From positions 26,849,915-26,913,914 of the forward strand of contig NC_081186.1 in the NCBI RefSeq assembly GCF_029867415.1: a stretch of 64,000 nucleotides of DNA. The letters run 5' to 3'. The notes under the pieces were generated by a model. The model saw nothing but the letters and a program-made list of their open reading frames with translations, made no database searches and was not told the DNA's origin. This DNA is from Vicia villosa. Taxonomy: Eukaryota; Streptophyta; Magnoliopsida; Fabales; Fabaceae. Of this stretch, positions 7,587 through 57,134 are shown piece after piece. Position numbers and translations under genes: made by a program. Numbering within the stretch: the first letter of the stretch is position 1; every line of letters begins with the position of its first letter.

Positions 7587-10100
7587 TTAGGGAGGGTACT
7601 TCCTCCTCCAAACTTGATTGCTTGTCACCTCTACAACCACGAACTCAGGAAGACGAAAAGCACGAACCACTTTTCTCTTTAAATCATTACCCACCTTCAT
7701 CTCCTCACCTTGATTTTCCTCTTTCTTCTTCTTCTTCTTCTTCTTAACTTTTTGAATAAACTTAGGAATTATGACAGATGCATGCGATACAGTCACCTCA
7801 CAGACTATGCTTGAGACTTTTTCTAGGAGAGGTTTTGGACCTTTGCTCTCTCCTTTAGTTTTAATTGTGCCAACCGAAAGTTGATTATTTCTATTTGCAC
7901 TATGCTTATTGACTTCCAACACCTTCAATGTTACCTCTTCATCAAATGACTTTACCGTCAGTGTCCCTTTCTCAATATCAAAATTGCAGCGACTAGTAAG
8001 CAAAAATGGTCGACCGAGAAGGATAGGAGTTTCTTCATCTTCGGGAATGTCCATGATGTGGAAATCAACTAGAAAGATAAACTTACCGATCTCTACTAAT
8101 ACATCTTCAGCTATACCATATGACTTCTTAATGGTGTGATCAGCAAATTTCAATTTTGTCTCACTCTCGCTTATCTTTCCAATGTCAAGCTTTTTGAAAA
8201 TAGACAATGGCATTAAACTTACACTAGAACCAAAATCAATTAGCACCTTCTTGAACGTTCTATCATTGATAGTGCAAGGAATTGCCACTGCTCTAGGGTC
8301 TTTCTTCTTGGTTGGAATCCTCCTTTCTGGCGAGACTCTACCACACTTTTCGATTCTAACTTTCTGCTCATCTCCCACTTGTTTCTTCTTAGAAATTACC
8401 TCTTTCATAAATTTCTTGTACAAAGGCATATTCTCAAGTGCTTCAAAGAAAGGTAAGTTAATCTCTAACTTCTTGAACATTGCAGCAAACTTCTCAAAAT
8501 CCTTCTCTTTTGAATCCTTCTTGGCCACTCTAGAGGGGAATGGTAATTTGACCACCGGTTTAGTTTCTTTCTTATTTTTCTCTTCCAGCGGCTTAACCGG
8601 TGATATCACTACTTCAGGCTCTTTCGGATTTTCTCTCACTTCTAGATCTACCTCTATGACTAAGTGGTCATCTATTTCCTCTTCTTCTTCAGGCTCTGGC
8701 GCTTTCTGACTTCTTGTTGTAACAACATTAATTTTTTCTTGGTTTTTTGGATTTGCCACAGTTGAGCTTGGAAGAGTACCTTGTGCATGTAGAGTGAGAT
8801 GCTGTGCTATCTGACCCACTTGAACTTCCAGATTTTTGATTGAAGCTGTTGTGTTCCTATGGTTGTTTCTTGTCTCTTCTTGAAACTGAGAACATTGTCC
8901 AGCTAGTCTCTCAATAGCTACTTCCCATTCTGCCTTCTGAGGAACTTGTTGTTGATCTTTCCATGAGAAGTTTGGGTGATTCTTCCATCCCGGATTATAG
9001 GTGTTAGAATAGGGACTGTTCTGCTTCAAGAACTTGATTTCTTCAATTTGTTGAGGAGTTGCAAAACAATACATAGTTTGGTGAGGGCCATTACAAATCT
9101 CACAACTGACCGTTTGAGCCGGTTGAACTTGAGCCACAGTTTGAGTCTCAACAGTCATCTTTTTCAATCTCCGCTCAACTTCCGCAGCTACCTGATCTTC
9201 TATTTTCACAACTTGCGTTGACAATTTCATATCCACTAATCCTTCAGGTTAGCTAACACTATGGTCATATAACTCCAAGTGTTCATTGGCCGCAATAGCT
9301 TCTATGATTTTTTTAACACCAGTGGCTGTTGAAAAGTTGGATGAGCCACCAGCTGCTGTGTCAATCAGTTGCTTAGTCTTCATTTTAAGACCATTCAGAA
9401 AATTCTGCATTTGTTCAGTGACATCCATGTTGTGAGTTGGGCATGCCACCAACAACCTCTTGAATCTCTTATACGCATCTCCAAGTGATTCTCCTTCCTT
9501 CTGTTTAAAATTTACAATATCATACCTCTTACGGATATAAACAGCAGCGGGAAAATACTCATTCAGAAAGGTTGACTCCATTTGTTGCCATGTGGTAATA
9601 CTCCCAGCAGGTAATGAGTAGAACCACTCTTCAGCGTCATCCGCTAACGTGAATGGAAACATAACCAACTTCTTGGCTTCTTCAGAGTGTCCTTCTATCT
9701 TCAAAGATGTTGTCATAGTAAGAAACCTTTGTAAATGCTTATTAGCATCTTCATTTATTCTTCCTGAAAATGATTTCTTCTCCAGCTGTCGAATTGTTGC
9801 TGGGTGTAGCTGAAAGTGAGCAACATCGACCGGTTGATTTACAATTGTCATCCGGCCAGCTGGTGCATTTGCTCCACCATAATCACCTAACAGCCTTTCT
9901 ACGGGAGCTGCCATCGTTTCAGCCTCTGAATCTGAATGCTCGAAATGAATAGAGAGAATTTCCTCGTTCTCAGATTCCGAAGCTGTCAGAATGTCTTCTA
10001 ACGCTTCCAGTCGTTCTTGCTTTGCTTTTCGAAGCCTAGCTCGCAATGATCGTTCTGGCTCTGCGTCAAAAATAAATTCTGCTGAGGCCTTACCTCGCAT
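7587..10100 (-). pseudogene. Athila-like gag-protease, one frame with a single internal stop
   Basis: Two segments in the same frame, 10100-9249 and 9236-7587, separated by one TAA at 9249-9251. The first 283 residues are the Athila gag: a helical N-terminus rich in Arg, Lys and Glu, then the retrotransposon-gag core (WFYSLPAGSITTWQQM about residue 160, RFKRLLVACP about 217). The second segment has a zinc knuckle CEICNGPHQTMYC near residue 44, a low-complexity acidic/basic linker, then the aspartic protease with LIDFGSSVSLMP about residue 330 and ILLGRPFL about residue 405, and a poly-Lys tail. The active site reads D-F-G where Athila proteases usually have D-L-G. Whether the stop is a mutation or allows some readthrough cannot be told. 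The frame could start at the ATG at 10098-10100. Confidence 0.85.
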
Positions 10101-10223
10101 ACAAAGATTAGACGATTATAAGTAATAAGCAAATCAAATACCAGACAAATAAAAAATATAACAATTTTAGTTGCAGAGCAACAAAAATTCAATTGAACTA
10201 TTCTTCAACTTATAATTTGGCAG

Positions 10224-15664: not shown

Positions 15665-15694
15665 CTAGTGTTTGACCCGTGCCTTCGCACGGGT
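15665..15694 (-). other. Helitron 3' terminus: hairpin and CTAG
   Basis: ACCCGTGC (15675-15682) pairs perfectly with GCACGGGT (15687-15694) around CTTC. On the minus strand the hairpin is followed by six bases and CTAG, then T. An 8-bp GC-rich stem about 10 bp from CTRR is the classic rolling-circle termination signal. Confidence 0.92.
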
Positions 15695-16277
15695 ACCCGT
15701 CGGTCTTGCGCATTGGGTTTTAGGGAAATTAAATAGGATAGGAAAGAATAATAGATATGGGTAAGTTCATATAATAAGGTTAAATGTTTGAAATAGGTTA
15801 AAAATATATGTTGGGCCTTATTGTTGGTTAAAATATGTAAGTTAATAGGACATTAAAATTCATTGGGCCTTAGATGGTAGCTTTGGTGGAGATTACCTAA
15901 TTTTATTGGTGGACTTAATAGGATTAATAGGCCCACAAAAGAATCCTATTATTATTATTATGACCATGTTACATAACGTTGCAATTAAAAATAAAAGAAA
16001 CGTTGGACTTCATAAGTATTCAACGTGTTGGCAATCAAAGGAAACGTTGTGTCTTCATAAGTCTATGTTGGGCATTAATGCTGTAAGAAACACAGGGTTC
16101 GGTGGTAAGTTTGAAGAACAACATGTCACGGGAAAGAAGGTATCCTCTTCGAATGAGGTATGTGCATGTGTTTCTGTTTATGTTGTTTGCAGAGGTTATT
16201 ATAATATTTTCATCCATTTAGAGGTCGTGATGCCGTTTTGATTCCAGTTCACCTGATTGGTTGGAGTTGTAAACACC
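15695..16277. other. Subterminal Helitron DNA
   Basis: No clear gene. Two similar phrases ('acgttggacttcataagt' and 'acgttgtgtcttcataagt', 16000-16062) form a short imperfect direct repeat. A splice-donor-like GTATGT at 16158 and acceptor-like TTCCAG before 16240 could belong to a 5' untranslated exon of the B3 gene that follows. Confidence 0.35.
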
Positions 16278-17517
16278 ATGGAAGCGGATTACGATTGAGA
16301 GGATACTGAGTGGGTCACATGAGAGGGAGGATGTTTTGGAGGAATGGAAGAAACATCATGAAAGATTGAATCGTGTTGAAGATGCTGGTGAAGTTTCTAA
16401 GTTCGGTCAAAAGAATGAATCTGTAGATGCTGTCAGTGTTGTTGAAAATAAAGGGTAATCCTATGATTTTATTTGGTTTTGCATGTTATGATAGTAGGTA
16501 TTGATAAATGTATGGTATTGTGTGATGTTTACTATAGTTTATAATAGAAATTTTTGTTATATTATAATCTGTTATGTTGATTGTAAGTGTGGTGTGTGAT
16601 GTTTGTAAAGTTATATAAATAAATGGATATTGCAGGTTTGTAGTCTGTAAATGAAACTGAACCTCCACAAATTTGAATGTGTTTCCCAAATAATGTGTTC
16701 ACAACTTAGTGTAATGATTATTTTGTATGTTATTGTGTTGAAGGAATAATGGAGATGGGATAGAAAGTGATTTATTGAAAACAGTGGGCGTGAAAGGGAA
16801 GGAAAGAAATGCTGCTGGTGAAGTTTTGTTGAAATGCGACAGCATAGGCGGAGATAAATTGAAGGAGAAAAGTGAAGTTGAAAGGTGGGAGAAAGGAAAG
16901 GATAATCATGTAGGGTCATCTTCTGCGGGATTATCAGATACCGCTGATTTGAAGGAATACATAATGATCTCTTCTGATAGTGAAAGGTAAAGGTTTTTTT
17001 AAGGGATAGGGAATATATTAGAGTAATAGGTATACTGAGGTTGTTGTGTTGGCATTGAGGTGTAAATGTGGTGTTTATTTCAGGGAAATGAGTCCTATAC
17101 ATGAGGAACTGGAAGAAGAGTATTGGACTCGTGAAGTTCATGATGTAAAGAAGTTTTGCTCAAATGTTATGGTAAGTAGTGCGCAAAGTTTATAGTTGTT
17201 GGTACAATGTTGTTATACACAGATGTAATGTAACTGATATTGTTTGTCAATGAGTGCAACATATTCCTGCAGAAGTAGTAGACAAATGTGGTCTTGTTGG
17301 AATGTCAGAGATAGTTCTCTATGATATGGACAACGGGTACCCATATGACTGCAATGTGAAGAAGAGGCCAAAGAGAAAGGAAACATATTTGTACGGAGAG
17401 TGGTTTGACTATGCAAGGGCAGCTGAATTGAAAGAAGGAGATAAAGTGCACTTTGTGATTCGATACCCGCCAGTGTTAGATATTATGGTAACAGTGGAGC
17501 GCAGTGGTGGTCGTTGA
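16278..17517 (+). pseudogene. B3-domain gene A (damaged copy)
   Basis: Proposed exons: 16278-16454, 16744-16986, 17084-17171 and about 17260-17517. The last exon encodes a B3 DNA-binding domain: HIPAEVVDKCG start, YLYGEWFDYARAAELKEGDKVHF in the middle, VTVERSG end. The earlier exons encode a Glu/Lys/Ser-rich linker. Phases agree across the first three introns. Two defects: the frame of exon 1 is shifted by one base soon after its ATG (stop at 16296-16298, open again in the frame starting 16297), and the last intron ends in AA at 17258-17259, where the sister genes have AG just before the B3 domain. Exon 3 ends in SNVM, matching QNVM before the B3 exon of gene C. B3 proteins are plant-specific transcription factors acting in the nucleus; the targets are unknown. 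Confidence 0.65.
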
Positions 17518-17562
17518 TAAAGCTGTTGGTTTGGCAATGTTTGTGGTGGATGAATAGGACAG

Positions 17563-17818
17563 TTTGTTGTTAGTTTGGTTTGTATGTGAATTATGGTTTT
17601 GTTTTTTATTGTTAATTTTGGCAATGGTGTATGTGAACAAAAATTAACAATTATGGTACTATGTATGGTTTTTAATTGAATATTATCAAGTTTGTTGTTA
17701 GTTTGGTTTGTATATGAATTATGGTTTTGTTTTTTATTGTTAATTTTGGCAATGGTGTATGTGAACAAAGATTAACAATTATGGTACTATGTATGGTTTT
17801 TAATTGAATATTATCAGT
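17563..17818. repeat. 128-bp tandem duplication
   Basis: 17563-17690 is repeated almost exactly at 17691-17818 (tttgttgttagtttggtttg...). It lies directly downstream of B3 gene A and is non-coding. Confidence 0.9.
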
Positions 17819-18446
17819 TTTGGGATTAAGTTTTATTGATTGTGCAAACTCTGCCATGGTTTTATTTGCAAAATTGATTACCATTGTGTTTCTAAATTAA
17901 GTATTGCTTATTATAAGTAGTGAAACAGGATCTCTATCAAAATTGATTACCATTGGGTTCCTAATTTAATTATTGTTGGTTATTATAAGTAGTCAAACAA
18001 GATCTCTATAAGTAGTGAAACAGGACCTGTAAATGGTTGCCTATTAAATCTAAATGGTGAACATACAACAATAGACTTATTAAGAATTGAAAATTCAATT
18101 TAATAGTATATGTTAAACAATAATATAGTAATATTAAATAGTTATAAAATAGTTGTAATGTGTTATATTATATTGGGAGGTGAAAGATCAATTGGGTTAT
18201 GGGCAGTAAATGTGTTTTCATGAGGAATATAAATAAAATGAAAACTGTTTTGAAGTGATGTAAATGCAAAGAAGGCTAATTGAACAATTGCATTGAATTC
18301 TATTGGACGGTGGAAAAGTAGCAGGTATGTGAAGAGTCCATTTAGAGTGTTATATAAGTAATGTTTAGGAAGGTTGAAAGCACTAAAAACTGAAGCAGTC
18401 ATCATTACTCTGTAAACAATAGTGTAGGCTGCGAATTTCTAAAAAG
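17819..18446. other. Spacer upstream of B3 gene B
   Basis: AT-rich, with short local repeats ('ataagtagtgaaacaggac' variants around 17915-18030). A TATATAA box at 18351-18357 lies about 90 bp before the ATG of gene B and is a plausible core promoter. Otherwise no gene seen. Confidence 0.45.
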
Positions 18447-19166
18447 ATGGAAGGAAAAGTTGATCAAGCAATGAAAGGTAAAGGTAAACATATCATTTGA
18501 GTGGTTGTTCTGTTACATTTTGAATTGAAAAGCCGAATATGGTTGCATGCAGGTGAAGAAAACTCGGTGAACAAAATGGTTGTGGGGAAAGCTGTCACTT
18601 CTGATAACTCTGTGTATGTTTGAATCAGTTTATGTTGAGTATACGTTTTTATGTTTTTATTTAGAAGGTTTGGCAACATATTGGTTTATTGGTCGTGTTG
18701 TTTGTTTGTATTATGTTTCAGATGCCATGAAGCTGATGGTGAGGATGTTAGCTGCCATGCAGAGCAGCCTGTTGAGTTACCATATTGTATCTGGAAGAAA
18801 GATGTGGTGAATGGGAAGATGGCTCAGTCATGTCTTCTTGTAAGTTATTTTTCGTTTTAGGCTTATTGTCTTAGGGCCCTTAATGGGAAAATCTAATGTT
18901 GTTTTATATTAATATTGTAGGAAATTCCTGAGCATGTTGTGGCAAGTCGCTGGCTACATGGAGTAAGGTTCGTAGATTTGGTCGACTGGGAAAGGGAAGT
19001 CAGGTATGAATGTGAAGTTCATCGTACTAAAAAGGGTCAGATGTTCTTAGGGTGTGGTTGGTACAAATTTTCCAAGGACAGGAGCCTGCTTGATGGAGAC
19101 TCTATGGGTTTCAGCATTAAGGATCCCGTCAGCAAGGAGATACTTGTAACAATGTTGAAAAATTGA
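18447..19166 (+). CDS. B3-domain protein, gene B, intact four-exon gene
   Basis: Exons 18447-18477, 18553-18613, 18722-18839 and 18921-19166 join without stop into 151 codons; all three introns are GT...AG (75, 108 and 81 bp). The product has a short acidic N-terminus and a B3 DNA-binding domain from about residue 60 to 149, with the conserved core GWYKFSKDRSLLDGDSMGFSI and closing strand ILVTML. An intron falls just before the first conserved B3 strand (EIPEHV), as in the sister genes at 16278 and 25214, indicating common origin. B3 domains bind the major groove of DNA in plant regulators (ARF, ABI3, REM and others); with a single domain and little else, REM-type or DUF313-like membership is possible but not shown. 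It is the only undamaged gene in this Helitron. Expression is unknown. Confidence 0.85.
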
Positions 19167-19492
19167 AAAATGATGTAAAAGTTTGTTATAAGTATCTATC
19201 TATCAATATTTTGTAATTCCCTGATGGACTTAGCTCCATCTTTATATTAATATATAAGATTTTGGTATTTAGATGTTTTGCTATACATACATTGAGGCTT
19301 AATAATATAAATGAGAAAGGTACCATAAAACATTACAACATACATATGAAGATATAATTAATTGTTATATTTTTTAACAGTAACGCATCATAAGATTCTA
19401 TTAATATATGAAATTAATGTAGTATAGCATAGAATGCTGTTAGTAATATAGATTACTGTTGTTACAGAATTACTGAGATAAATGTTTGAAAC
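19167..19492. other. Convergent spacer between B3 gene B and the Helitron helicase
   Basis: AT-rich, 326 bp, between the stop codons of two convergent genes; likely holds both 3' ends. No further feature seen. Confidence 0.5.
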
Positions 19493-20980
19493 TCAGACAT
19501 TGTTAAAAACCTCTTTATACACAACATTAGTAGTTTTCCCCTTGAATTTCTTTTCTTCATCATGTATCAGTATTTTGATTCCCTTTTTTGTTGTTACTCT
19601 TGACAATGCAACATAAATCTGGTCGTGTGTAAATACATCTCTTGGTAAGTACAAACCGATGTTATCCAATGACTGTCCCTGTGATTTGTTGATTGTCGTA
19701 GAATAGGAAACTATAATAGGGAACTGTCTTCTATTCAGTTTGAATGGCCATGGTGATTGGGATGGTGACATGTCCATTCGAGGTATGTAAACCAAATTTC
19801 CCAAACCTTTACCGCCCATTATTGAAGCCTCGAGTACATGGGCTGCCATCTTTGTTATGCACAGCCTTGTGCCGTTACACAAACCTTCAGATTGATCTAT
19901 GTTTCTCATGAGCATTATAGGTGTCCCAACCTTTAGTTTTAAGTGATGGTTAGGCAAACCTGATGTTCGGAGGGAACTTAGAAATTCTGGCGTGAGGATA
20001 TCAACTACTGTTGGGTCATGAATCTCAGACTTGTTAACTGAATTTGCGCTGTAGTAGTCACGAATTTCTCCTGCATTGTTGACTGAACATAATTAGTAAA
20101 AGCATAAAATCTATTAATATAATCCATTAAATTATATTTTTGTTGCTTAACCTGGCATTAAGTTAAATATATGGTCATTGATCTGATCAACGATCTCCAG
20201 TGTAGAGGCCAGTATTGCTCGACTTTTAAGGTAATTAACGGATTGGAAATTATTTATGAAATCAGGGTATGTGGTATTGACAATGGCCACAATTGGATCA
20301 TCAAATTCTGTTATTAAAATATCAGGTGGTATGTCGATTTTGGCGGTGCCGTCATTAGGCTCAGATATCCGGCCCTCTCCTATTCTTAAAAGCCAATCTG
20401 AAAACTGTGCTATTTCATTTTTATCAGTCTGTGTTGATCATGTTTGAAGCCGCATGTTTCTTGTCAATGTTAATACCTCAACTGAATGCCATATGTAAGA
20501 TGCATTTATGGCACAGTGTACAATATCGGAACGACTGCCTCTGGGGATGACAGGCAAAATATGTCTAAAATCACCACCGAAAACAACAACCTTTCCACCA
20601 AATACATCGCTGGAATTTTTGTTTGCACTCATAACATCTTTCAAAGTTCTGTCAAGCGATTCTATTGCATACTTACGTGCCATTGGTGCCTCATCCCATA
20701 TTATAAGCTTTGTCTGTCGTAGCATGTCTGCAACATCATCGTTGAATTCAACCTTGCAAGTAGAATTGTCCATAGTTGGTACCGGTATCCTGAACTTTGA
20801 ATGTGCAGTTCTACCTCCTGGAAGTAACAAAGATGCTATACCACTAGTTGCAACAGTTAAACATGTATCATGTTTTGATCTTAAAGTTGCTGTGAGTGTT
20901 CTCCACACATATGTCTTTCCGGTACCACCATAACCATGAAGGAAGAAAACGGCAGGATTCTGAGACTCCACAGCTTGCAT
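19493..20980 (-). pseudogene. Pif1-family helicase domain of the Helitron transposase
   Basis: Superfamily 1 helicase motifs are in order: Walker A GYGGTGKT (about residue 16 of the 20980-20438 frame), Walker B LIIWDEAPM, VVVFGGDFRHILPVIP, LTRNMRL. After a TGA at 20438-20440 the frame continues to about 20155, then an intron, and motifs INKSQGQSL and IYVALSRV follow at 19957-19493. All recognisable ATPase motifs are intact apart from the stop. It would unwind DNA during rolling-circle transposition. Confidence 0.88.
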
Positions 20981-21406
20981 AATTTTTTCATAAATACCTC
21001 TTTGCTCATCTAAGAAATATAATAGTGAGGGTAAAAGAGTGTTAAAATAATCGATTGATTGAATTTCAAAGTGTAAAATAAAATGAATTTAATTGATCCA
21101 ATAATAACCTGTAAGAGCAGCAAACAGATTTTCAAATTTCGAGTTCATTGATGTTGTATCGTAATTACGCTCATCATATATGAGTCTGTTTCCCAACTGT
21201 TCAAGAACATAAGCATTCAGATATGGAATAGGACTAAAATCCTTTAGTGTCCTTCTATTTGCTTGAAGCAGTTTCTCAATTTCTATTAAAGTCAAATTTT
21301 GTAACTCTTCTTGTGTGAGGACTAATTCTGCTTTGATATGAGGAATTGAGTTATAATACTGTTGGTAAGTCATCTGTAGATTGTTATTAAGAAATTCTTT
21401 TGTTTG

Positions 21407-23003
21407 CTATTTTATTTTGCCTAACAAACCTGGATTTGCAGCCAACGCTCTTTGTGCATGTAAGACACCATCAAATAATAGGAGCCAAGATTGTTCCCAA
21501 ACATGTGCAGGGCAATTAACAGCACCTGACAAAAGCATGACGACAAACAGTTTTCGAAGAAAATGACCTGTCCCCCAATGACTTGCCTCCTTTATAGCAG
21601 CTATGTATTCTTTGTCGTCTTCAAGAAATCCCATTGCAAAGCACGCATCTCTAAATATATCAAACTGGATGTTACCCACTGTCCTGATTTCCTCGTAAGT
21701 TGTTGGTCCTTTTGCTACCGTCAACATCATGCGGAGGTAAAACAGTTCACCAGCTGTTGGCGGAACCCATATGAGACGTCCAATGGTGAAGCCTTTTTTA
21801 CGCGGTTTCCATTCTCTTTGTTTTTTGTGATAAACAAACTTTGAGACAAATTAACCGTAAGTTAATGTTCGTGCTTCTTCATATTTAGCATTTGCCACCA
21901 GCCATGCAGTAAACATTGATTCAGTCACACTTGCAGTTTCCAGCATATTTTCCATGCGTGCATAATCTGTATAGTAGATAGGATTCTCCCCAACCAAATG
22001 GTAGAACATACGTTCCACATCTGGTTTTCTGCCATGAATATTGTAAGAGTAAATGCGCCAGCATGCTTCACTGGGGGAGACATACCTGCAATCGAGATAT
22101 TGTTGGATTTCATCAACAGGTTGATTGTTATTTGTTGAAACTGCTGTTGTTATTCTATCATAGCCTTTATTGATATATTTGAAAAGATATTTTATGGAAG
22201 TACTCTGATTACACCATTCCATGTTTATATGTGCCTGGTATTTCATAAGAAATCTGGTGTTATATGGAACCACATGTCTGTTGTCCAAGGTGATACCATT
22301 TTTTTCAATAGTGAAGGTTTTTGATCTTCTCCTATAAAGTGGATATCCCTCTGCATCAACAATAGTGTGTTCAATAAACTTTTTTGGATAGTATTTAGAA
22401 CATCTTCCATTCTTCATACATTGTGAGTTCATGCGTGCGAGGCCACAGGGTCCATGCATCATATGTGCCTTAACTAACTTGTATAAATTGGGATGAATAG
22501 TCGGGTCGGGAATTTCAGCAGAAATGATGTTGTCTATGTCAGATGGTGTTGGGTATCCGCATGTGGCAATCCCCGCTTTTGGAATTCAATGGTGTACATA
22601 TCTATAAAATTGAAAGTTAGTTTGATGTAATATTTTGGTACTCCACAGACACATGATTCAAATGTAGTATAATTAAATGAAACAACTTACATGCAATAAC
22701 TTTTCCGACGACATGGTGTTTTGTAATATCATCCATGAGGGTATCAAACTTTATTTTGAAAACTTTTGAAATGATATCTGGCCTATCATGGGGTTGTAGT
22801 CCTGTTCCTGACAATGCTCTTTTAATTTCAGGCCAATTTGAGTTGCAGGTAAATGTAACAAATAAATCAGGGAATCCCAATCGACTTGAAATGGCCATAC
22901 CGTCAAAATATAGTTGATCCATATATCTCTTGCTACCAACAAATGTTGATGGCAAAACAACTTGTTTTCCTCCGCTTCTGGTGTTCATTTCTTCTATCGC
23001 CAT
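21407..23003 (-). pseudogene. Rep (HUH nuclease) domain with truncated HUH motif
   Basis: Exon 23003 to about 22690 encodes GFPDLFVTFTCNSNWPEI and ends HHVVGKVIA. The next exon, from about 22602, begins MYTIEFQKRGLPHA and then should continue H-I-L-L; instead about a dozen codons are missing and the frame changes at about 22558. It reopens as PCGLARMNSQCMKNGRCSKYYP and reaches STSIKYLFKYINKGYDR, the region holding the catalytic tyrosines. Without the second histidine, metal binding for nicking should fail. An in-frame TAA at 21851-21853 interrupts the same exon, which resumes as FVSKFVYHKK and continues to 21407. Confidence 0.85.
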
Positions 23004-24798
23004 CAGTTTGAGTGGTCAAATTATTATATTTGCCCACTCTTAACTTCGATTGATTATCCCTCTACCAATTCAGTCGTTCGGATTCCATCATAGCATAACC
23101 GTCGACTAAGAATTGTTGAAATAGACGTCTTGAGTAAAGTAGTGTTTTTGCCTCTTTGTGACGTTGTTGTAACCGGTAAGAAAACCAATCCTTAATGCTC
23201 TGACGGTTTTTCCTAGTGACCTCAGTTTCATGGCGATATTTGTGCATTATATTTTTCCTGTAACCATCTTCCCCATAAGGAAATATAAGAGGATACTGAT
23301 ATGCCAAATATGCCGGGTGAAACTCGTCTATTCGTTGTAAACCACCATTGCGGCGCTGAATTAAGATGTTCCTTTTATCAGCAGAATCAATGTCTCCCAC
23401 AATGAGTGCAGCCACTTCTGAGTTAGTAGGTTTGTTGTAAACACGGCCATCTTCGGATCTATCAGAAATAAGCCTGAGTTTTAAATCTATGAAAGAATTT
23501 GTCCTTAAAACATCCCTTGCCATTCTAAAAGCTTTGGCATGAACATTGTGCTCATCTAACATTAGCTTGAGCTTATTGACAACGGGGCGCTCGATGCCTT
23601 TGTTGTCCCTGTGTATTTTTGGCATTCATGAATAAATAGTTCAACAAAATATTTTTATAAACAAATTATGTAATTGTGTCTGAGCAGGCTTACTTGAAAC
23701 ATTTTATTCTGTGTTCAACTTCATTGTCCGTGTCGTAGATGTATAATTGAGCATATTGCGGAGGTTTTCCGGTTTCTGGCAGTAGTGTACCAATTCGATG
23801 ACAGGTCTGACCTTGTAGTCTCAAAGTAGGGGGTCCTCCTCTTTTAGAGTATGTTGTGTCGAATTTCATTCTGGGGGAAGTGAATGAGAACATTGTGTTG
23901 TATGTTCGTATGTTAGCCTGGTAGTTTTTATTGTCTGAATATGTTTTATTAAATAGAAGATCTTGCAACACCTGTGGAGGTTGCTAAAGGAACGGAAGAA
24001 CAATTTTTCCTCCACGGTAGCAACGATGAAACCGAGGAATTGTTGTAATTTTGTGTCTATTCAATTTTTCTTGGTACCACATACATGCTTGGCAGTGTGC
24101 GCATTCATAATTTTGGTCTCCAATATCGTAATATTCTGAAAGAATAAAACACAATATTGAATATGTGCATAATAGAGGAAGTGTACATCATTTGGTTATT
24201 AGTGTATGATGTGGGATATACCTTGAAGATGGGCCTCCTGTAATTGTGCAGGCACTGAATCCTCCTCAGAGTCGGAACTATTAGAAGAATTTAAATTATT
24301 GTCAGAGTTGGAGTCATCATTGTCCTGATAATGAGACTCAGCTGACATATTATGATTTGAGGTAGATGCATGATCCATGTTCTGATTTTGAATAACAATG
24401 TTATTTGAAAATTGAACCCCATAATTTGAATTCTTGCGTCTTGAATTTGCATTTGCGCACTCACTAACTTCAGTATTGATGAAATTTCTCAATCTTTTTC
24501 TGTTATCCAAGATTATCTTCCTTATCTTTCTAGCCATAGCCGTTTTAACAGTGGTTTCATATGTTACATAGGATGTAAAATTAAGATTTAAATGGGAAGT
24601 GAGGTTGTTTGATCTGATACCATTTCGATAATCCCTCTTCGCTTTGAGAATAAGTTTTCTCATATTTCTTGCAATTGATGTTTGAGGACCAGTGTTTTTA
24701 ACAACATCTGTTACCATAACAAACACAAAAATATGGTGAATAATACAAATAAGATTGATTTGTATAGGTTTATGCACACTATATGAGATGTATAGCAT

Positions 24799-25213
24799 GC
24801 TACTTCATGACTTTGAATACTAAATGTTTACAGTTTCTAATTGATGGGTCATTGGTGGGTTAAAATGTCATGAATGCAGTATTGATTTTAAATTTTCTTT
24901 TCATAGTTGAATATATATGAAGTTGGAACTGAATATGAATAGAATGATAGTTATAGATTTAAATTAGCAATTATCCCTCCCTTATAACTGTTGTGTGTGT
25001 TTAATGTATTTAATTTAATTTATATATGTTAATTATAATATTTTATTCGATGCATGTGTTACTATTTTAAAAACACTTTAAGTAAAAACTAATATTATAA
25101 GAAAATAGAAACTGAACAGTTAACCCACTCTCTGCATGTACAAAGTACTTATTTTCTCTTGCACTGAATAGAAGTTTAGCATTGCAACTGGTAGTCGGTT
25201 AGGGTTTTCTACA
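24799..25213. promoter_or_regulatory. Divergent intergenic region between Rep/helicase and B3 gene C
   Basis: 415 bp separating the 5' ends of two oppositely transcribed genes, so it should contain both promoters. It is AT-rich with several TATA-like runs (for example TTATATATG at about 25020). No operator could be identified by eye. Confidence 0.45.
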
Positions 25214-26354
25214 ATGGCATTTTCACACGGAGGTTCTTCTGTGCGGATTCCTTCTGATGATGATAATGATTTCAGGTATGAGCAGTTAGTTTTATTTCAC
25301 TTTTGTATTGGTGTACAAAATAGGGTCTATTGGTGTACAAAATTTGGTAGTGTGGTAATAACAGTTATAAGCAGTTAGCGATGGGTGAAGTATCAATATA
25401 GTTTAATGTTGTATTATGTGTGATATTTGTCAAGAAATCAAATGCTAGTGAATGGCTATTGGGGTTTTTTATTGTGGGATTATATAGTTAGTTTTTGTTT
25501 TATCCAGTCTGTGTGGATCCCGTGCTTGCTCGATATATAACTATTGCTTAGTAAAGAATGCTTCATATGTGGTTGGTTTTTAATCCATATTTGATGTTGG
25601 AATAGCAATGATCAGGCAATGGAAATCATAGGAGAATTAGTAAAGGAAATAGGGTACGATCCTAAGATGGAAAGAAAACGCAGGAACAAACAGCGCGATG
25701 TAACCCCTGGTCGTGTTGTGTCGAATATTGATCTTGGTACACAAAATAGCACAGGCATTGAAAGCAATCACAATGCAGGACCTACAAAGGTAAAAGAGGA
25801 AGCAACAAACATTGACACAACTGAAATCAAAGTTTCAGAAGTTGGTGAAGCAAGTGGATCAAAAGAGGGTAAGAAAGGAAGGCGTACAGCGGTGAAAAAA
25901 ATCAAAGGTGGAAACAGACATTACTGTAGACCGTTCTACAGGTGCTCAAAATTTTTTCTGGAACACTCATGTTACAAATGCTAAATCTACACAGCAGAAT
26001 GTAATGGTAAGGAGACATTTGAATATGATCATCATGTTATTGAAAATGTAAATAGTGTATAATGTTAATGGTTTCTTTATTTCCTCTATGCAGCATTTCC
26101 CTAAGGAAATTGCAAAAAGATGCCTCCGTCGTTTTCATGACGAAATTAACTTGCTCGATGTGAGGACGAAGAACATTGTTACCTGTCAGGTCCACAAAGC
26201 TAATAGAAAGGGAATACCCCAGCCATATGAAAAGTACATGGCGCTGGGATGGTACGAATTTGCCAAATCACTTAACCTCCGTAATGGGGATACAATAGTG
26301 TGGAGTATGCTGCGATTCTCTCCGTATATCTACGTGAAGGTTGAAAGACAATGA
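25214..26354 (+). pseudogene. B3-domain gene C, single-base frameshift
   Basis: Exons 25214-25275, 25606-26006 and 26094-26354, with GT...AG introns. The last exon encodes a B3 domain: HFPKEIAKRCLRRF at its start, the core ALGWYEFAKSLNLRNGDTIVWSM, and YVKVERQ before the stop. Exon 2 encodes a basic/acidic linker (KRRNKQRD; GSKEGKKGRR). Exon 2 has 401 bases, one too many for the frame: the reading frame is lost around an A7 run near 25898-25904 and would end at 25982-25984, while one frame over reads openly through THVTNAKSTQQNVM to the exon end. One extra A (a mutation or an assembly error) therefore separates it from an intact gene. It resembles the two B3 genes at 16278-19166 in exon layout. 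Confidence 0.75.
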
Positions 26355-27223
26355 ATTAACTGCTATTATCAGTTAACCTTGTACTATAGCTGAAATTTAA
26401 TGGGTATATTATATGTTGGGAATGTTTTTTTTTGGTACAATGTATTTTATATATTCTACTGCATGTTATTTTGTAAGCACCTTAGCCAAAATGGGAACAT
26501 ACTAATATTTTGTCTATTTGAAGATCTAATGTATAATTGTTTTCGGGACATACTTTTGAAGTTCTCCTATTATATTATATTAATCCTCTCTGATATGCTG
26601 TTAGTTAAAATGTAATCCGTCACATAATATTGTACCAGCATTACACTAAGATCAGTCATAAAATTATTTATTGATAGTTAACATAGTCAAATGTTTAAAG
26701 TTTTGGTGTTTCTTTGTGAGGCACAATCAATGTTTCATCATACAATATAATGAAAGAATGCTTAGGTTCTGTACATCCAAACAAACCGTTCTTCGCGACA
26801 TCATTATTTTAACTACATGCAGTAGAATATTAGTATATCACGATCAACATCGGATCATTATGTAAAGTTTATAATGTTGAAATAATAAAAAACCAAGGCC
26901 CCATTATAAGAAGTATAGTTAAAATGGGATAAATGTTACACGATACGGTAAAAATAGAGTAGGATAAACATTTTGTCTGTGTGGAAACTATATTTAATGG
27001 AATGAATGGTATATGATAAAAAAGAATCAAAATAATTGATAATAGTATATATAATATGTAGTAGAAGTTGAATCATTTGAATATAATATGACACACAAAC
27101 CATATACATCCTTAAATCAAAATGAACATAACAGAAGCAACATAGTAAGTATTCATGCACTAATTATTACAAAAAACCAAATCACACACATGTTTAAAAG
27201 CAAAGGAAACTAACATCCAGTTT
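26355..27223. other. Convergent spacer between B3 gene C and RPA
   Basis: About 870 bp of AT-rich DNA between two convergent genes. Short open frames on both strands have no recognisable product. Confidence 0.45.
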
Positions 27224-29793
27224 TTATAACAAAGACATAAGCAAAACACACACTAAATAACAATAGATGTAATCAATCTTCTCCATTTTAATTATCTTCT
27301 TTAGCTTGTTTGATGACAGTTCTCCATCATATAATCCGTCCAAATCAGTGGATTCACTTGATGCACCAGGAAAATGCCTCTTACCAGCAGGTGTGACAGC
27401 ATCAGGCTTGTGCTCAGATGTAATTTCCAGGTCCTGCCAGATAATGTTGAAGAATATTACTCAGGAATATTGATATAAATGTAAGGAGGTAAGTGTGTTG
27501 CATTGAAACTCACCGTAACCAATTCACAGTCTTCATTGACATCTGTTTTAGCCTCATCAACACTCTCTTTAATCTATATATAGTTTAACCCAGAAATTCA
27601 ATATAATATAATCATAGGAAACGCAAAAAAAGGCATACACAGTTTAAAATTTGTACCTCCAGAGTCTCAGGTATTACAGTTTGGATTGGAATAGGTTCCT
27701 TGAAAGTTAAAAAAACAAAATCAAAATCAGTCGAAAGATTGTTATAATAGCAAGTCCTCTTTTATAAAATGAATGACAGTTTATAAGAGCTGACCTCATC
27801 TGTTCCCCACTTTTCCTTAAGTTGCTGGATAATAGGATTATTTTTTATAATCATAATGACGGAACAGTTCTTCCAGCGTGGATGCCACTTAACCTTCATA
27901 GCCATTTCCAACTTCAACAATTGATCAAGTGCTAACGGGAAGTCCAATGGATCAGTAATTCCAGCCTATTTAAAGAACCTGTTGTATTAGTGTACGCAGA
28001 GTATCGGAAAGTACATTCTAATTCGTGAGCAGAATATAAATATAACCTGAATCATAGTGTTACGAAGTTGAGACGCAGATAAACCCAAGAGCATTTCACA
28101 TTCTCTGTTCCAGAACAGAACACAAAATTGCAGCTTTTGCCCCCATGAGTAACCTCAATCTCAATCTTATACCTGAAACATCATAAGAAGTTGTTCCATT
28201 AAAAAAGCAGACAACATAGAAACGACACAAACATGACAGAAACAACATAGATTAGGTGAGAACAACTAAAACCTAAGGACTTCAGCCATGGTTTCATGAC
28301 CAGCTTCACACTCAAATGGGGGGTTGTCCCCACGCGCTATAGATTGACACATATGACAGGCACGATAGTACCATCCAAATGGAGACGCGACTAATAATTT
28401 TGTTGTAGCGACAGTAGCACAAAATGTAATCTGGACAAAGAGTAGATAATATCAAAAATTATCACAATAAATGATGAGGTTATAAATATAATATGGAAAA
28501 ATAGTAACACATACATCCGTAAGTTGAATAATCTCAGCAATAGGTAAAACAACAGCCTTTGAGAACAATTTTTGCACAGGAGTCAGCTGTTGATTTTCAG
28601 AATTCTGGGAGGATAATTGGGAATTCCCTCCGAGTTGATCAGACAGGGTTACCCTGCTCTCCTCAGGCATTTTGCAGATCATGGATCATTATCAAAGTCA
28701 TGAATAAAATAATTGCATATAATGGATGATACTAACAACATACCTATCAATAAAGTCTTTCATGACAGAAAAATCAACATCAACACATAAAAGGGTCACA
28801 TTGTAGGTGTTTGTCACAGACAGAGGATACTTTCCTGCAAAGTCAAATTATACCTTGTCAATGGATTTATTACAGATTTTGGAGTTTAAGTATTAATTTA
28901 AAATGATTTAAATAAGTCATGAAATAACCTTCTTCTTTCACTTTGGCATACTGAAGCAACACAACTGTAGGGAGTGATGCAGCAACCCTAACTTTGTTAA
29001 ACCTGATGAATTGATCCGCGTATGATTCCCACAGAGTACAGTTCAACATGTTGTTGCTAAACCATCATCACAACACATTAGGGTATATCACATGATTTTA
29101 CTATCAGGGAGTCTTATGTATAATCAAAAAAAACCTGTGGTCACGCAACATCATGCTAATTTGCTGCTTCTTTGCGTCAGACTCAGTCTATGCATAACCA
29201 ATACTATCGACCATTCCAACGACATCTGGAAAAAATATATTAATTTCACACGGCTAAAAGGCATCAAAACATGAGATAATAAAACACCAAAAAACTATTC
29301 TCACGAATCAGGACATATTTGACAAACTTCCCTGTTTTGATGTCCGAAAAACTTGTAAAATAAATCGATTTCGAGGGTATCTCATGTTTGTCTTCATCAA
29401 GAACAGACGTTCCAGCAGTAAACTTTACCATATATTTGTGTTCTGATGCCTTGAACGCCATAACATAAGGCACCACCTTAAAACTAGATACAGTATAAGT
29501 ATGCCCTAATAGGCATTTTTCGGTGAACACCGACACATGTGGTGCTGGAACAACAGCATGAATATCATCTCCCTGCGCCAAAAACCAAAAAATGTTCAAA
29601 ATTATATAAACATACGTAAATGATAAACATGCCGAAACATAAACAGGGTAATCACCAATTTGTCAACAAAGATCATTTCAAAATGTTCCTTGTTGTTAGA
29701 CACAACATTCCATCTGTGGTGAATCCTAACAACAATCTTCCAAAGCTCTTTTCCATCGTTGATCTCTACTATTCTCTCAACAGGCCTAGACAT
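27224..29793 (-). pseudogene. RPA70-like single-strand DNA-binding protein of the Helitron, broken
   Basis: Plant Helitrons often carry a replication protein A large-subunit homologue, thought to bind single-stranded DNA during transposition. The first exon (29793-29656) starts MSRPVERIVEIND and encodes WKIVVRIHHRWNV of the first OB fold; the second (from 29572) continues with YTVSSFKVVPY. Further exons give VVGMVDSIGYA, the linker with SQNSENQQLTP, and the C-terminal zinc/OB fold with FGWYYRACHMCQ...FECEAGH (about 28300-28400). It ends in a Lys-rich tail near 27224. Lesions: TAG at 29188-29190 in the third exon and a one-base deletion in the C-run at 28140-28144. At least nine exons; boundaries beyond the first are approximate. 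Confidence 0.85.
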
Positions 29794-30125
29794 GATCATG
29801 CAAATTCACACTGCACTGAATTATAACTGCAGAAGTTAGAAAGCATGGAAAGGAAAAGAATGAAAGTGACTGATAAATAGGCAAGCCATTTAAACAGGTC
29901 ATTATTGCGATTAGCCAGTTTGGAACGTGGATAGGCAGAGAAAGTGAAGAACGCGTAACTGCAAGATCATGAGAAGTTGAGAGGGTGAAACTTCCACAGT
30001 AATAACTGCCGCAGCCCATAATACAGAGGGAATGATGAGAGAATGATGTGGAATTTTTTGGAGTGTTTTGCTGATGTGGATAGGCCAATTGATCAGGAAG
30101 TGGTAGACTCTTCTTATATGATAGA
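29794..30125 (-). promoter_or_regulatory. 5' terminal region of the Helitron
   Basis: Runs from the TC terminus at 30125 to the RPA start codon. It should hold the RPA promoter; a CTATTTATC box on the minus strand at about 29871-29879 is a weak TATA candidate some 80 bp before the start. The subterminal sequence CACATCAGCA on the minus strand (30066-30075) resembles Helitron left ends. Confidence 0.5.
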
Positions 30126-53410: not shown

Positions 53411-55468
53411 TCAGGTCAATGCGAAGTATTTTTTGACTACATCTGCGTTCACGGGGTGCGGAAAATTCTCGCCATCCATCGTTGCAAGCATCATGGCACC
53501 GCCAGAGAATACTTTCTGCACAACAAAGGGGCCTTCATATGTCGGAGTCCACTTGCCTCGAGGATCACCCCGAGGAAGGATAATTGTTTTGAGTACCAGA
53601 TCACCTGGTTTGTAGCTTTGGGGTCGCACCCGCTTGTCAAAAGCTTTTCTCATCTTCTTTTGGTATACCTGACCATGACCAATAGCCGCTAAGCGTTTTT
53701 CGTCAATGAGGTTCAACTGATCCATCCGATTCTGTACCCATTCTGACTCGTCAAGCTCGACGTCTTTCATGATCCTTAGGGAAGGAATCTCAACTTCAAC
53801 AGGAAATACCGCTTCCATGCCATAAACAAGTGAGAAAGGAGTTTCCCTAGTCGATATGCGCACAGAGGTGCGATAACCATGCAGGGCAAAAGGTAGCATT
53901 TCGTGCCAATCTCGGTAAGTCACTACCATCTTCTGCACAATCTTCTTAATGTTCTTGTTAGCCGCTTCGACAGCGCCATTCATCTTTGGACGATACGGAG
54001 AAGAATTGTGGTGCTTGATCTTGAAGGACTCACAAAGCTCCTTCATCATCTTGTTATTGAGATTCGATCCATTATCAGTAATGATCTTCTTAGGAATCCC
54101 ATAACGACAGATTATGTTGTGCTTGATAAAATGAGTAATCACTTGCTTGGTGACATTCGCATAAGATGCGGCTTCAACCCACTTGGTGAAGTAATCGATG
54201 GCAACCAAAATGAAGCGATGTCCATTAGAAGCAGTAGGCTTAATCTCTCCAATCATATCAATGCCCCACATTGCAAAAGGCCACGGAGAAGTCAAGACAT
54301 TCAAAGGCACAGGCGGCACGTACACTTTATCAGCATAGATCTGGCACTTGTGACAAATTCTAACATGGTTATGACAATCAGTTTCCATAGTGGACCAATA
54401 GTAACCAGCCCTCAAGATCTTCTTAGCCATCGTATGCCCACTAGAATGGGTACCAAACTCGCCTTCGTGCATTTCTTCGATGATTTTCGAAGCTTCTTCT
54501 TTCACAACACATCGGAGCAACACACCGTCATGACGCCTCTTGTACAATACTCCACCGTTGAGGTAGAACTTAGCTGCAAACCTTCTCAAAAACTTCTTAT
54601 CAGTCACCGACGCTTCGGGAGGATACTTTTGAGTTTCGAGGAACTTTTTAATATCATGATACCAGGGATTGTCGTCCAATTCGACATCGGCCTCAAAGCA
54701 GAACGCTGGTTCGTCCAGCCTGTTAATGGTGATGTTAGGCGCCTCATTGGCCCATTTCACTTTGAACATGGAAGCCAAAGTAGCGAGAGCATCAACAAGA
54801 TTATTCTCTTCTCTAGACATATGCTCGAAGGTGATCTCATCAAAGTATGGAATAAGTCTCATCACATGCTCCCTGTATGGAATCAAATTCTGATGGCGAG
54901 TTTCCCAATCTCCATTGATCTGGCTAATGACAAGATTGGAATCACCATAAACTTTCAAGTACTTGATTCGCAAATCGATCGCAGCTTCGATACCATAGAT
55001 GCAAGCTTCATACTCAGCCATATTATTAGTGCAATCAAAACAAATTCTGGCTATAAACGGAATATGAAAACCTGAAGGAGAAGTAATCACATCTCCAACA
55101 CCATTCCCAAGTGCATTAGAGGCACCATCGAACACGAGCGTCCATCGCGATCCTGGTTCGGGCCCTTCCTCTGGTCCGGGAATGTTACAATCTCTGATGT
55201 ACAAAACATCCTCATCGGGGAATTCAAACTTCATCGGTTCATAATCTTCGACAGGATGATGCGTAAGATAATCTGCCAACACACTACCTTTGATGGCTTT
55301 CTGGGTAGTATACTGGATATCGTATTCAGTCAAAATCATTTGCCATCTGGCTACTCTTCCGGAAAGAGCGGGCTTCTCAAAGACATACTTAATAAGATCC
55401 ATCTTGGAAATCAATAAGGTGGTGTGAACCAACATATACTGCCTCAGCCGGCGAGCAGCCCACACCAA
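53411..55468 (-). pseudogene. Ogre RNase H and integrase part of pol
   Basis: An open frame of 685 residues, separated from the reverse transcriptase only by one in-frame TGA at 55475-55477. First the end of the RT-linked RNase H (RLRQYMLVHTT, ADYLTHHP). Then a second, archaeal-type RNase H as in Tat elements, with FDGAS, MAEYEA, YGDSNLV and LVDALA marking the four acidic residues (about 110-230). Then integrase with an HHCC finger (GEFGTHSSGH...CHNHVRICHKCQ) and the catalytic triad in WGIDMIGE, IITDNGSN and NGAVEAANKN. The C-terminal end has GDLVLKTI and the GPF..KVFSGGA block. Apart from the upstream stop it looks intact. Confidence 0.92.
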
Positions 55469-55474
55469 AGCACA

Positions 55475-56875
55475 TCAAGTTTTCTCGAGCAGTGAGTATC
55501 GGGATTCACAGTCGGTAAACTTTTTGCTAAGGTAGTATATTGCATGCTCTTTTCGGCCAGACTCGTCATGTTGACCCAGCACACATCCCATTGAATTTTC
55601 AAGAACTGTGAGGTACATAATCAAAGGCCTTCCTGGCACCAGAGACATTAGTATCGGAGGTTCTTGCAGATACTCTTTCACTTTTTCGAATGCTTTTTGA
55701 CAATCATTATTCCACCTGGCCGTCTGATCTTTTCTTAATAATTTGAATATTGGTTCACAAGTGGTCTTAAGATGAGAGATGAATCTAGCAATGTAGTTCA
55801 ATCTCCCTAAGAAACCACAAACCTCTTTTTCTGTTCTCGGCTCAGGCATCTCTTGTATAGCTTTTATTTTCGCATGATCGACCTCAATACCTTTTCCACT
55901 AACAACAAAGCCCAACAACTTTCCGGATCGCACTCCGAAAGTGCATTTGTTTGGATTCAACCTCAATCTGAATTCCCGAAGCCTTTCAAACAACTTCTGC
56001 AAGTGAACCAAGTGCTCTTCTTCAGTGTGAAATTTTGCAATCATGTCGTCGACATACACTTCAATCTCTTTGTGAATCATGTCGTGAAAAAGAGTCACCA
56101 TGGTGCACTGATACGTTGCCCCGGCGTTTTTCAACCCGAAAGGCATGAATTTATAGCAAAAAGTTCCCCACGGTGTGATAAACGTTGTTTTCTCCATGTC
56201 TTCTGGTGCCATCTTGATCTGATTGTACCCAGAGAAGCCATCCATGAAGGAAAACACTTTGAAAGGAGCAGTATTATCCACCAACACATCAATGTGGGGA
56301 AGAGGAAAATCATCTTTCGGACTCGCCCTATTCAAATCCCTGTAGTCCACACACATCCTGACCTTTCCATCCTTCTTAGGTACAGGAACAATATTAGTGA
56401 CCCACGGCGGGTAATTCACAACTTGCAGAAAACCAACATCAAACTGTTTCTCGACTTCTTTCTTAATCTTCTCAGACATATCTGGACGAGTCCTTCGAAG
56501 CTTCTGCTTGACAGGAGGACTATCTTCCTTGAGAGGTAGACGATGTACCACAATATCTGTATCTAGACCAGGCATATCCTCATAGGACCAAGCAAAGATG
56601 TCCGCATACTCTTTCAACATAGCAATAAGCCTCTGCTTCACACTATCCTCAAGCGCAGCCCCTATCTTGACTTCTTGGACCTGCTCTTTGGTGCCAACAT
56701 TCACCATCTTGATTTCCTCCTGATGCGGTTGAATTGCTTTCTTTTCTTCCTGTTTTAACAATCTGGCCAATTCATCAGGGAGATCATAATCTTCATAAGC
56801 TTCCTCCTCGGCTTGGTAGATCGGATTGTCAAAATCATAATAAGCAATAGCGGAACTATTACCAATGGAATCCAT
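55475..56875 (-). pseudogene. Ogre reverse transcriptase part of pol
   Basis: 466 residues. An acidic N-terminal region (YYDFDNPIYQAEEE) typical of Ogre precedes the RT: VDYRDLNRASPKDDFPLP, FSFMDGFSGYNQI, FMPFGLKNAGATYQ and the catalytic YVDDMIAK (about residues 170-285), then the connection and the start of RNase H (LGQHDESGRKEHAIYYLSK). It ends at a TGA after LLEKT, where the frame simply continues in the next segment, so this is a nonsense mutation within one pol gene. The start near 56875 follows a splice-acceptor-like TGCAG at about 56891. Confidence 0.92.
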
Positions 56876-57134
56876 GGTGGTGGAACATCTGCATGATTGA
56901 TGTTTTTATTTTAGTTTTATTTATTAAGCTATGTGCAAGTGTGTGCAAAAACATTGCCATTTAAAGGAAAAAGTTAAAAAGAAAGACAGAGAGCAAAACA
57001 TTTGAATGCAAAAACGTCCTTTTATTTCATGATTAACTTTGAAAATGCGAACTGCATGGCCCTACAAATGATTCACTACGCCTTGGGCAGAGCGTAGGAA
57101 TTATGTCATGATAAGAAAAGTAAAAACAAGGAAT
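56876..57134 (-). other. Intron-like gap between gag and RT
   Basis: 259 bp with stops in all minus-strand frames, AT-rich, ending in CATGCAG before the RT frame. Ogre elements are known to have a spliced intron near this position. No aspartic protease motif is present here or at the adjoining ends of gag and RT. Confidence 0.6.

What the first reader, a model, noticed from the sequence alone, without database searches (positions are those of the whole stretch)
15665..30125. A Helitron carrying a family of three B3-domain genes
Seen: three + strand genes (16278-17517, 18447-19166, 25214-26354) inside clear Helitron ends, each with a last exon coding a B3 DNA-binding domain and an intron just before the first B3 strand. 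Known: plant Helitrons carry Rep/helicase and often RPA, and can capture gene fragments; B3 proteins are plant transcription factors. Inference: an ancestor Helitron captured a whole B3 gene that was then duplicated within the element, at two positions (beyond the helicase and between helicase and RPA). Repeated, complete, multi-exon cargo is unlike the usual single truncated capture. I know of no named Helitron family defined by B3 cargo.
Basis: partly seen in the sequence, partly recalled or inferred. Interest (0 to 1): 0.88.

Follow-up and report, generated by a model that had tools for sequence, protein, structure and literature searches.

The report
Helitrons with built-in B3 gene family
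A rolling-circle jumping gene in hairy vetch carries its own family of plant-type B3 DNA-binding genes as standard equipment, found beside the transposon's helicase at more than a hundred places in the genome.

Summary
The window lies in Vicia villosa. 15665-30125 is a Helitron in minus orientation (A|TC...hairpin-CTAG|T) with decayed RepHel and RPA genes and three antisense B3 genes. Only the middle B3 gene is intact here.

The B3 genes belong to a Helitron family; they are not a one-off capture. Of the 40 scored matches to the family's 3' terminus, 36 have gene 1 at 1.1-1.5 kb, 35 gene 2 and 31 gene 3; wrong-side and opposite-strand controls are zero. Seven of eight 3' ends and all seven 5' ends inspected in other copies are exact. 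Of the 150 scored helicase matches, 138 have a B3 exon antisense just 3' of the helicase, in at least three subfamilies; controls zero. Six Helitron B3 domains form one clade apart from 29 sampled host domains (112) but share their intron position. Gene 3's B3 exon is under strong purifying selection; gene 2's signal is weak; gene 1 is often interrupted.

Best reading: a Helitron lineage with an old, integral B3 family, probably regulators acting on the element itself. Function is inferred. My literature searches found no description of it.

The parts
15665..30125 (-). Whole Helitron, 14,461 bp, in minus orientation
   Evidence: Ends; collinear copies elsewhere in the genome with the same exact ends
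15665..15693 (-). 3' end: GC-rich hairpin followed by CTAG|T
   Evidence: terminus of the related subfamily searched genome-wide
30106..30125 (-). 5' end: A|TCTATCATATAAGAAGAGTC
   Evidence: terminus of the related subfamily searched genome-wide
16231..17517 (+). B3 gene 1, broken: start lost, stop at 16270-16272, last acceptor AA; later exon pieces 16279-16454, 16744-16986, 17084-17171, B3 exon 17260-17517
   Evidence: exon limits are my reading of splice signals
17560..17820 (.). Two tandem copies of a 128-bp unit between genes 1 and 2
18447..19166 (+). B3 gene 2, intact reading frame of 151 codons: exons 18447-18477, 18553-18613, 18722-18839, 18921-19166
19493..24804 (-). RepHel gene in pieces (Helitron_like_N, PIF1, Pif1_2B), broken: second HUH motif lost, premature stops
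25214..26354 (+). B3 gene 3, frameshifted in exon 2: exons 25214-25275, 25606-26006, B3 exon 26094-26354
27224..29799 (-). RPA-like gene in many exons (one exon matches DUF223), with a premature stop near 29190; limits approximate

Best explanation
This is one old, decaying copy of a large Helitron lineage in Vicia villosa whose gene set is RepHel, an RPA-like gene and a family of B3 DNA-binding genes lying antisense to the helicase. SHOWN: fixed gene order and spacing in many copies, exact Helitron ends, several subfamilies with a B3 gene beside the helicase, and purifying selection on gene 3's B3 exon. INFERRED: an ancestral element took up a plant B3 gene with its intron; it duplicated before subfamilies A and B split; copies were kept because they help the element. 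Most likely the B3 proteins bind DNA of the element and regulate it, as activators of its own genes or as sequence-specific anti-silencing factors in the manner of the VANC proteins of VANDAL transposons. My odds: integral element genes 0.95; at least gene 3 useful to the element 0.75; acting by binding the element's own DNA 0.5; anti-silencing in particular 0.3.
For: Of 40 scored 3' ends, 36 have gene 1, 35 gene 2 and 31 gene 3; wrong side 0, opposite strand 0. Gene 2 has gene 1 upstream at 108 of 133 listed loci and gene 3 downstream at 74 of 133, 57 of them at 6.5-8 kb. Exact ends with unrelated flanks. 138 of 150 scored helicase matches have a B3 exon antisense on the 3' side within 5 kb; three controls 0. 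One clade of six Helitron B3 domains, support 100/98. Gene 3 B3 exon: 15 of 17 substitutions synonymous where 20% is expected, p=4e-9, while its linker exon shows no constraint, p=0.72. Tandem repeats in both subfamilies A and B, the kind of target VANC proteins use (PMC5735166, abstract).
Against: No expression, binding or methylation data. Gene 2's selection signal is weak: p=0.12 against C1612, 0.017 against C2_129. The gene 1 B3 exon matches only in part in 6 of the 8 fetched copies with a match, and 32 of 124 listed gene 1 hits match residues 58-115 only. The selection rows share the window branch and are not independent, and dS differs between segments (0.34 in gene 3 against 0.11-0.18 in gene 2 and RepHel, window against C1612). 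A k-mer scan of one copy found no candidate binding motif beyond AT repeats. Twelve of the 150 helicase matches have no listed B3 exon.
Confidence: 0.6

Rival explanations
1. Passengers: B3 genes were taken up once by an ancestor and are carried along without use, copied only because the element is copied.
For: Helitrons often carry gene fragments (PMC6431247, passages). Genes 1 and 3 are broken in the window copy, gene 1 is interrupted in many copies, and gene 2's selection signal is weak.
Against: Gene 3's B3 exon is strongly constrained; B3 exons stay next to the helicase in at least three subfamilies; gene 1-type and gene 3-type domains are kept in both A and B.
Confidence: 0.2
2. Transposition cofactors: the B3 proteins bind the element's ends or single-stranded intermediates and help RepHel or RPA.
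For: They are inherited with the helicase and RPA genes, and are DNA-binding folds.
Against: No repeated site at the ends was found. In the one copy of the class lacking gene 3 that I examined, RepHel is mostly deleted while genes 1 and 2 remain, so those two need not act with a helicase of the same copy.
Confidence: 0.15
3. Host manipulation: the B3 proteins act on host genes, or compete with host B3 factors, rather than on the element.
For: Nearest solved relatives by sequence profile are host REM-type factors VRN1 and At1g16640.
Against: Nothing here points to host targets.
Confidence: 0.08
4. Ordinary host B3 genes that happen to lie beside Helitron pieces.
For: V. villosa has many ordinary B3 genes, some in arrays.
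Against: The same genes recur at fixed distances inside the same ends on all seven large contigs and group apart from the host domains sampled.
Confidence: 0.01

Closest known systems
Plant Helitrons with RepHel and RPA genes, e.g. the relatives of DHH_Mothra of rice (PMC4683698; abstract, first part of Results)
   Same: TC and CTAG ends with a 3' hairpin, insertion between A and T, RepHel plus an RPA-like gene.
   Different: About three B3 genes on the opposite strand, at set positions. The parts of that paper I saw mention no B3 gene; its captured gene fragment is an APG6-like reading frame.
Helitrons with captured gene fragments (reviewed in PMC6431247, passages)
   Same: Host-type genes between Helitron ends.
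   Different: Multi-exon genes shared by many copies and by several subfamilies, one under strong constraint. [quoted passage not shown]
VANC anti-silencing proteins of VANDAL transposons (PMC5735166, abstract)
   Same: Working comparison only: a DNA-binding protein encoded by a plant transposon; tandem repeats present in the elements.
   Different: Different fold family and transposon class (recalled: VANDALs are Mutator-like elements); no binding, methylation or shared-motif evidence here.
REM-type plant B3 proteins (VRN1, At1g16640)
   Same: B3 fold; best profile matches in the PDB, E 0.002 and 0.004; intron two codons before the conserved Pro.
   Different: The Helitron B3 domains fall apart from the 29 host domains sampled and sit in mostly short single-domain proteins.

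Membership tests
Helitron | 5' TC and 3' hairpin plus CTAG/CTRR | tested here: met
Helitron | Insertion between A and T without target duplication, shown by unrelated flanks at exact ends | tested here: met
   Seven of eight 3' ends and seven 5' ends printed for other copies; no empty site was compared
Helitron | RepHel with HUH and two-Tyr motifs and a PIF1-type helicase | tested here: met
   Domains in the window; PHAHIL and YLFKYINKGYD in 9 of 10 fetched copies; HUH broken in the window copy
Helitron (subfamily B and the third group) | Helitron ends | not tested
   Ends not reached; only helicase similarity and linkage were seen
Plant B3 domain | Match to Pfam PF02362 above the gathering score | tested here: not met
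   E 2e-6 to 9e-4 in the window, all under 30.1 bits; the gene 1-like exon of subfamily B has no Pfam match at E<=1
Plant B3 domain | B3 fold | tested here: met
   One model, of P0001; best PDB matches are plant B3 domains
VANC-like anti-silencing system | Short binding motif repeated in non-coding parts of the element | tested here: inconclusive
   Tandem repeats exist, but a k-mer scan of one copy gave no clear motif
VANC-like anti-silencing system | Protein causes loss of methylation over the element | not testable with these tools
   Needs plants and methylation data

The most novel reading that the evidence does not exclude
A lineage of Helitrons turned a plant B3 transcription-factor gene into a diversifying family of self-directed regulators, perhaps anti-silencing factors, whose binding specificities co-evolve with repeats in each subfamily. 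This would be a VANC-like system invented independently in rolling-circle transposons, and a possible source of new B3 genes for the host.
Probability: 0.3. Interest if true: 0.92.

Novelty: new variant of a known kind. Interest (0 to 1): 0.82.

Why it matters
Genes found on Helitrons are usually treated as accidental fragments. Here a multi-exon gene family is a standing part of a Helitron lineage with well over a hundred copies, so the use of host-type transcription factors by a rolling-circle transposon becomes directly testable. It also warns annotators: the 12 V. villosa clusters of 'uncharacterized' proteins found look like transposon genes, and counts of B3 or REM genes in vetches may be inflated by them.

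Tried and rejected
Host-neighbour reading: rejected by co-location. Recent single capture: rejected, since gene 1-type and gene 3-type domains pair across subfamilies A and B.

Relatives outside V. villosa: three protein searches gave 12 V. villosa clusters plus two metagenome proteins (P0004, P0005). P0005 reads almost exactly like exon 2 of gene 3 in other V. villosa copies, so it is probably vetch DNA. These searches need shared five-residue words, so absence elsewhere is not shown. Viral and prokaryote contig scans found no relative.

A VANC-like clustered motif: not found in one copy. Ends of subfamily B: its 3' side runs into a 41-bp tandem array and no end was reached. The class of copies with genes 1 and 2 but no listed gene 3: the one examined has a different 3' end, a mostly deleted RepHel and a diverged RPA region; its 5' end was not resolved.

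Literature: ten searches. Five pair Helitron or rolling-circle transposon with a B3 or REM term (9, 35, 36, 122, 132) and gave 6, 0, 1, 0 and 0 papers; no listed title or abstract start reports B3 genes in Helitrons. I read matching passages of two of the papers (PMC8056531, PMC10881582), which are unrelated; the rest I saw only as a listing. Neither V. villosa genome paper mentions Helitrons in its main text (term search). Subscription papers and preprints are mostly not in the library.
Full report
Host. The window is G000:C7:26849915-26913914 of an assembly of 2,034,964,285 bases in 1,888 contigs. Vicia villosa Vvill1.0 has 2,034,988,938 bp in 1,888 scaffolds (PMC10659084, passages), and V. 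villosa proteins sit on contigs whose lengths equal those of C1, C2 and C3. The host is hairy vetch, so the V. villosa proteins found are products of other copies in the same genome.

Anatomy. 15665-30125 is a Helitron in minus orientation. Reading along it: 5' TC end (30125), RPA-like gene, B3 gene 3 (antisense), RepHel, B3 gene 2 (antisense), B3 gene 1 (antisense), hairpin and CTAG (15665). Gene 2 reads as 151 codons in four exons. Gene 1 has lost its start, has a stop at 16270-16272 by comparison with P0006, and its last acceptor is AA where C2_43.0 and C3_76.1 have AG. Gene 3 has one base more than the five copies aligned with it. The second HUH motif reads PHAD in the window and PHAHIL in 9 of 10 fetched copies. 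Stops interrupt RepHel and RPA. This copy is old and very unlikely to be autonomous.

B3 identity. Pfam E-values of the three last exons are 5e-5, 2e-6 and 9e-4, under the gathering score. A profile of the family finds VRN1 and At1g16640 in the PDB at E 0.002 and 0.004. An AlphaFold model of P0001 (mean pLDDT 68.7; residues 1-51 under 50, most of the domain above 80) has plant B3 domains as its best PDB matches.

Copies. The genome searches score only the best 150 (proteins) or 40 (DNA) candidates and list a part of the matches, so counts are samples and lower bounds. Gene 2 (query P0001): 268 exon matches, 1,081 candidates. Gene 3 B3 exon: 150 matches, 1,215 candidates. Gene 1, last two exons: 185 matches, 1,525 candidates. 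Listed hits of each of the three genes lie on all seven large contigs and on many small ones.

Linkage. I paired the listed hits by side and strand: 133 gene 2, 124 gene 1 and 92 gene 3 rows, with 26 gene 1-like and 58 gene 3-like rows of lower identity kept apart. Gene 2 has gene 1 upstream within 6 kb at 108 of 133 and gene 3 downstream within 30 kb at 74 of 133, 57 of them at 6.5-8 kb; 62 have both. Controls: gene 3 on the wrong side 1, on the opposite strand 0 and 0; gene 1 on the wrong side 0, on the opposite strand 0. Starting from the termini: of 40 scored 3' ends (816 candidates) 36 have gene 1 at 1.1-1.5 kb, 35 gene 2, 31 gene 3, and 19 a listed 5' end, 13 of those at 13.2-13.96 kb; wrong side 0, opposite strand 0. 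Of 40 scored 5' ends (444 candidates) 28 have gene 3, 25 of them at 3.77-3.84 kb, and 25 have gene 2; wrong side 0 (opposite strand was not run for the 5' ends). The longer distances suggest later insertions into copies, as seen in C4_28.6 and C3_11.4.

Boundaries. I fetched ten gene 2 loci. Of eight whose 3' region was printed, seven begin exactly at CTAG, with flanks that differ from one another; the eighth, C3_76.1, has another Helitron 3' end. C4_28.6 and C5_120 showed no 3' end in the stretch fetched. Six 5' ends, and that of C1867, start at the same TC; C1867 and C1612 share their 5' flank but not their 3' flank. Over the element the copies are 94-99.8% identical to C1612, C3_76.1 apart (88% over genes 1 and 2). 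The window copy is 73-93% identical to them by segment, C3_76.1 apart.

Other subfamilies. Subfamily B (C970, C3:217.7 Mb) has a gene 1-like B3 exon, a gene 3-like exon and a third B3 exon ('x'), all 3' of a RepHel match. Gene 1-like and gene 3-like hits pair at 6 of 26, five of them at 9.36-9.42 kb. Exon x lies 3.03-3.15 kb downstream of a gene 3-like exon at 26 of 36 close copies and 12.9 kb at one more; wrong side 1, opposite strand 0. In the genome x has 150 matches scored of 1,241 candidates: 36 at 92-100% identity, 43 at 62-75% and 71 below 49%. A helicase C-terminal query from subfamily B gave 150 scored matches of 1,063 candidates. Of these, 138 have a listed B3 exon antisense on the 3' side within 5 kb; same strand 0, 5' side 0 and 0. 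Gene 2 lies 0.82-1.01 kb away at 78; x-type exons lie 0.90-1.37 kb away in subfamily B, 1.98-2.16 kb away in a third group, and 3.05 kb away at one locus. Seen from x, 33 of 36, 25 of 43 and 1 of 35 typed low-identity hits have such a helicase; the other 36 low-identity hits were not typed into the script. Twelve helicase matches have no listed B3 exon. The helicase matches are those nearest to this lineage, so 138 of 150 says nothing about Helitrons at large. The ends of subfamily B and of the third group were not seen; calling them Helitrons rests on the helicase.

Origin. In a maximum-likelihood tree of 35 B3 domains (83 columns) the six Helitron domains form one side of a branch with support 100/98; gene 3 pairs with its subfamily B counterpart (99/80), gene 1 with its own (97/74). 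The 29 host domains come from 20 loci that I chose from the 150 hits, so a nearer host relative may be missing, and gene 2 is a long branch. In all six Helitron B3 genes the exon starts two codons before the conserved Pro, with AG before it except in the window's gene 1. Of 12 host exons printed, 10 have an AG at the same place, one (L015) three codons before the Pro, and one (L018) did not cover the place. No transcript was checked. A shared intron position argues for DNA-level origin from a plant gene; when and from which gene is open.

Selection. Nei-Gojobori counts, window against other copies. Gene 3 B3 exon against C1612: 15 synonymous, 2 nonsynonymous, p=4e-9. Gene 1 B3 exon: p=0.007 and 0.02 with the two full-length rows (C2_43.0, C3_76.1); six truncated rows were not tested. 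Gene 2 B3 exon: p=0.12 (C1612) and 0.017 (C2_129). RepHel pieces against C1612: p=2e-7 and 1e-4. Gene 3 linker exon: p=0.72. The tests use rounded counts, a simple model and rows that share the window branch; the window copy's own decay adds nonsynonymous change. The gene 2 B3 exon has no stop in any of the 10 fetched copies; the gene 3 B3 exon is full length in 7 of the 8 that match it as gene 3; the gene 1 B3 exon matches only in part in 6 of 8, and 32 of 124 listed gene 1 hits match residues 58-115 only. So the helicase and gene 3 are clearly constrained, gene 1 probably was but is often interrupted, and gene 2 is uncertain.

Mechanism. Shown: DNA-binding-type genes are inherited with the helicase, at set positions, in several subfamilies, and one is strongly constrained. 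Inferred: they act on the element. VANC proteins are the nearest working model (PMC5735166, abstract): encoded by a plant transposon, sequence-specific, with targets that often form tandem repeats differing between related elements. Subfamily B has at least 59 units of a 41-bp repeat beside its gene 1-like gene, the window copy a 128-bp duplication between genes 1 and 2. A k-mer scan of one copy gave nothing clear beyond AT repeats.

Novelty. In the searches made (listed under tried and rejected) I found no paper that reports B3 genes in Helitrons; a review calls full-length gene acquisition by Helitrons exceptionally rare (PMC6431247, passages). The element is a Helitron by every feature tested; what is new is the standing B3 family. 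Hence: new variant of a known kind.

Noticed in passing
L029-L032 (contigs C1612 and C1867); C755: C1612 and C1867 carry the element with the same 5' flank but different 3' flanks; C755 also has its 5' end at base 688 of the contig. Could be an assembly artefact or transposition that began upstream of the element.
   Followed up: partly
L043-L044 (C3:76.1 Mb) and L054: A class of copies with genes 1 and 2 but no listed gene 3. The one examined joins the gene 1-gene 2 half to a different Helitron 3' end and a diverged RPA region, with RepHel mostly deleted.
   Followed up: partly
L053 1571-4000 (C4:45.7 Mb): A tandem array of at least 59 copies of a 41-bp unit beside the gene 1-like gene of subfamily B.
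   Followed up: partly
Contig C370 330-820 kb; C3:194.1-194.2 Mb; C1478: Clusters of gene 2-like (68-74%) and gene 1-like (61-67%) exons tens of kb apart, as if a locus with the element had been duplicated in tandem.
   Followed up: no
Genome-wide: Below 49% identity there are 71 further scored, dispersed matches to the third B3 domain; most have no helicase in my lists, so the transposon-linked B3 superfamily may be much larger.
   Followed up: no
window 7590-10115 and 53414-58928: Long minus-strand reading frames that look by eye like retrotransposon gag and pol; not searched against a library.
   Followed up: no
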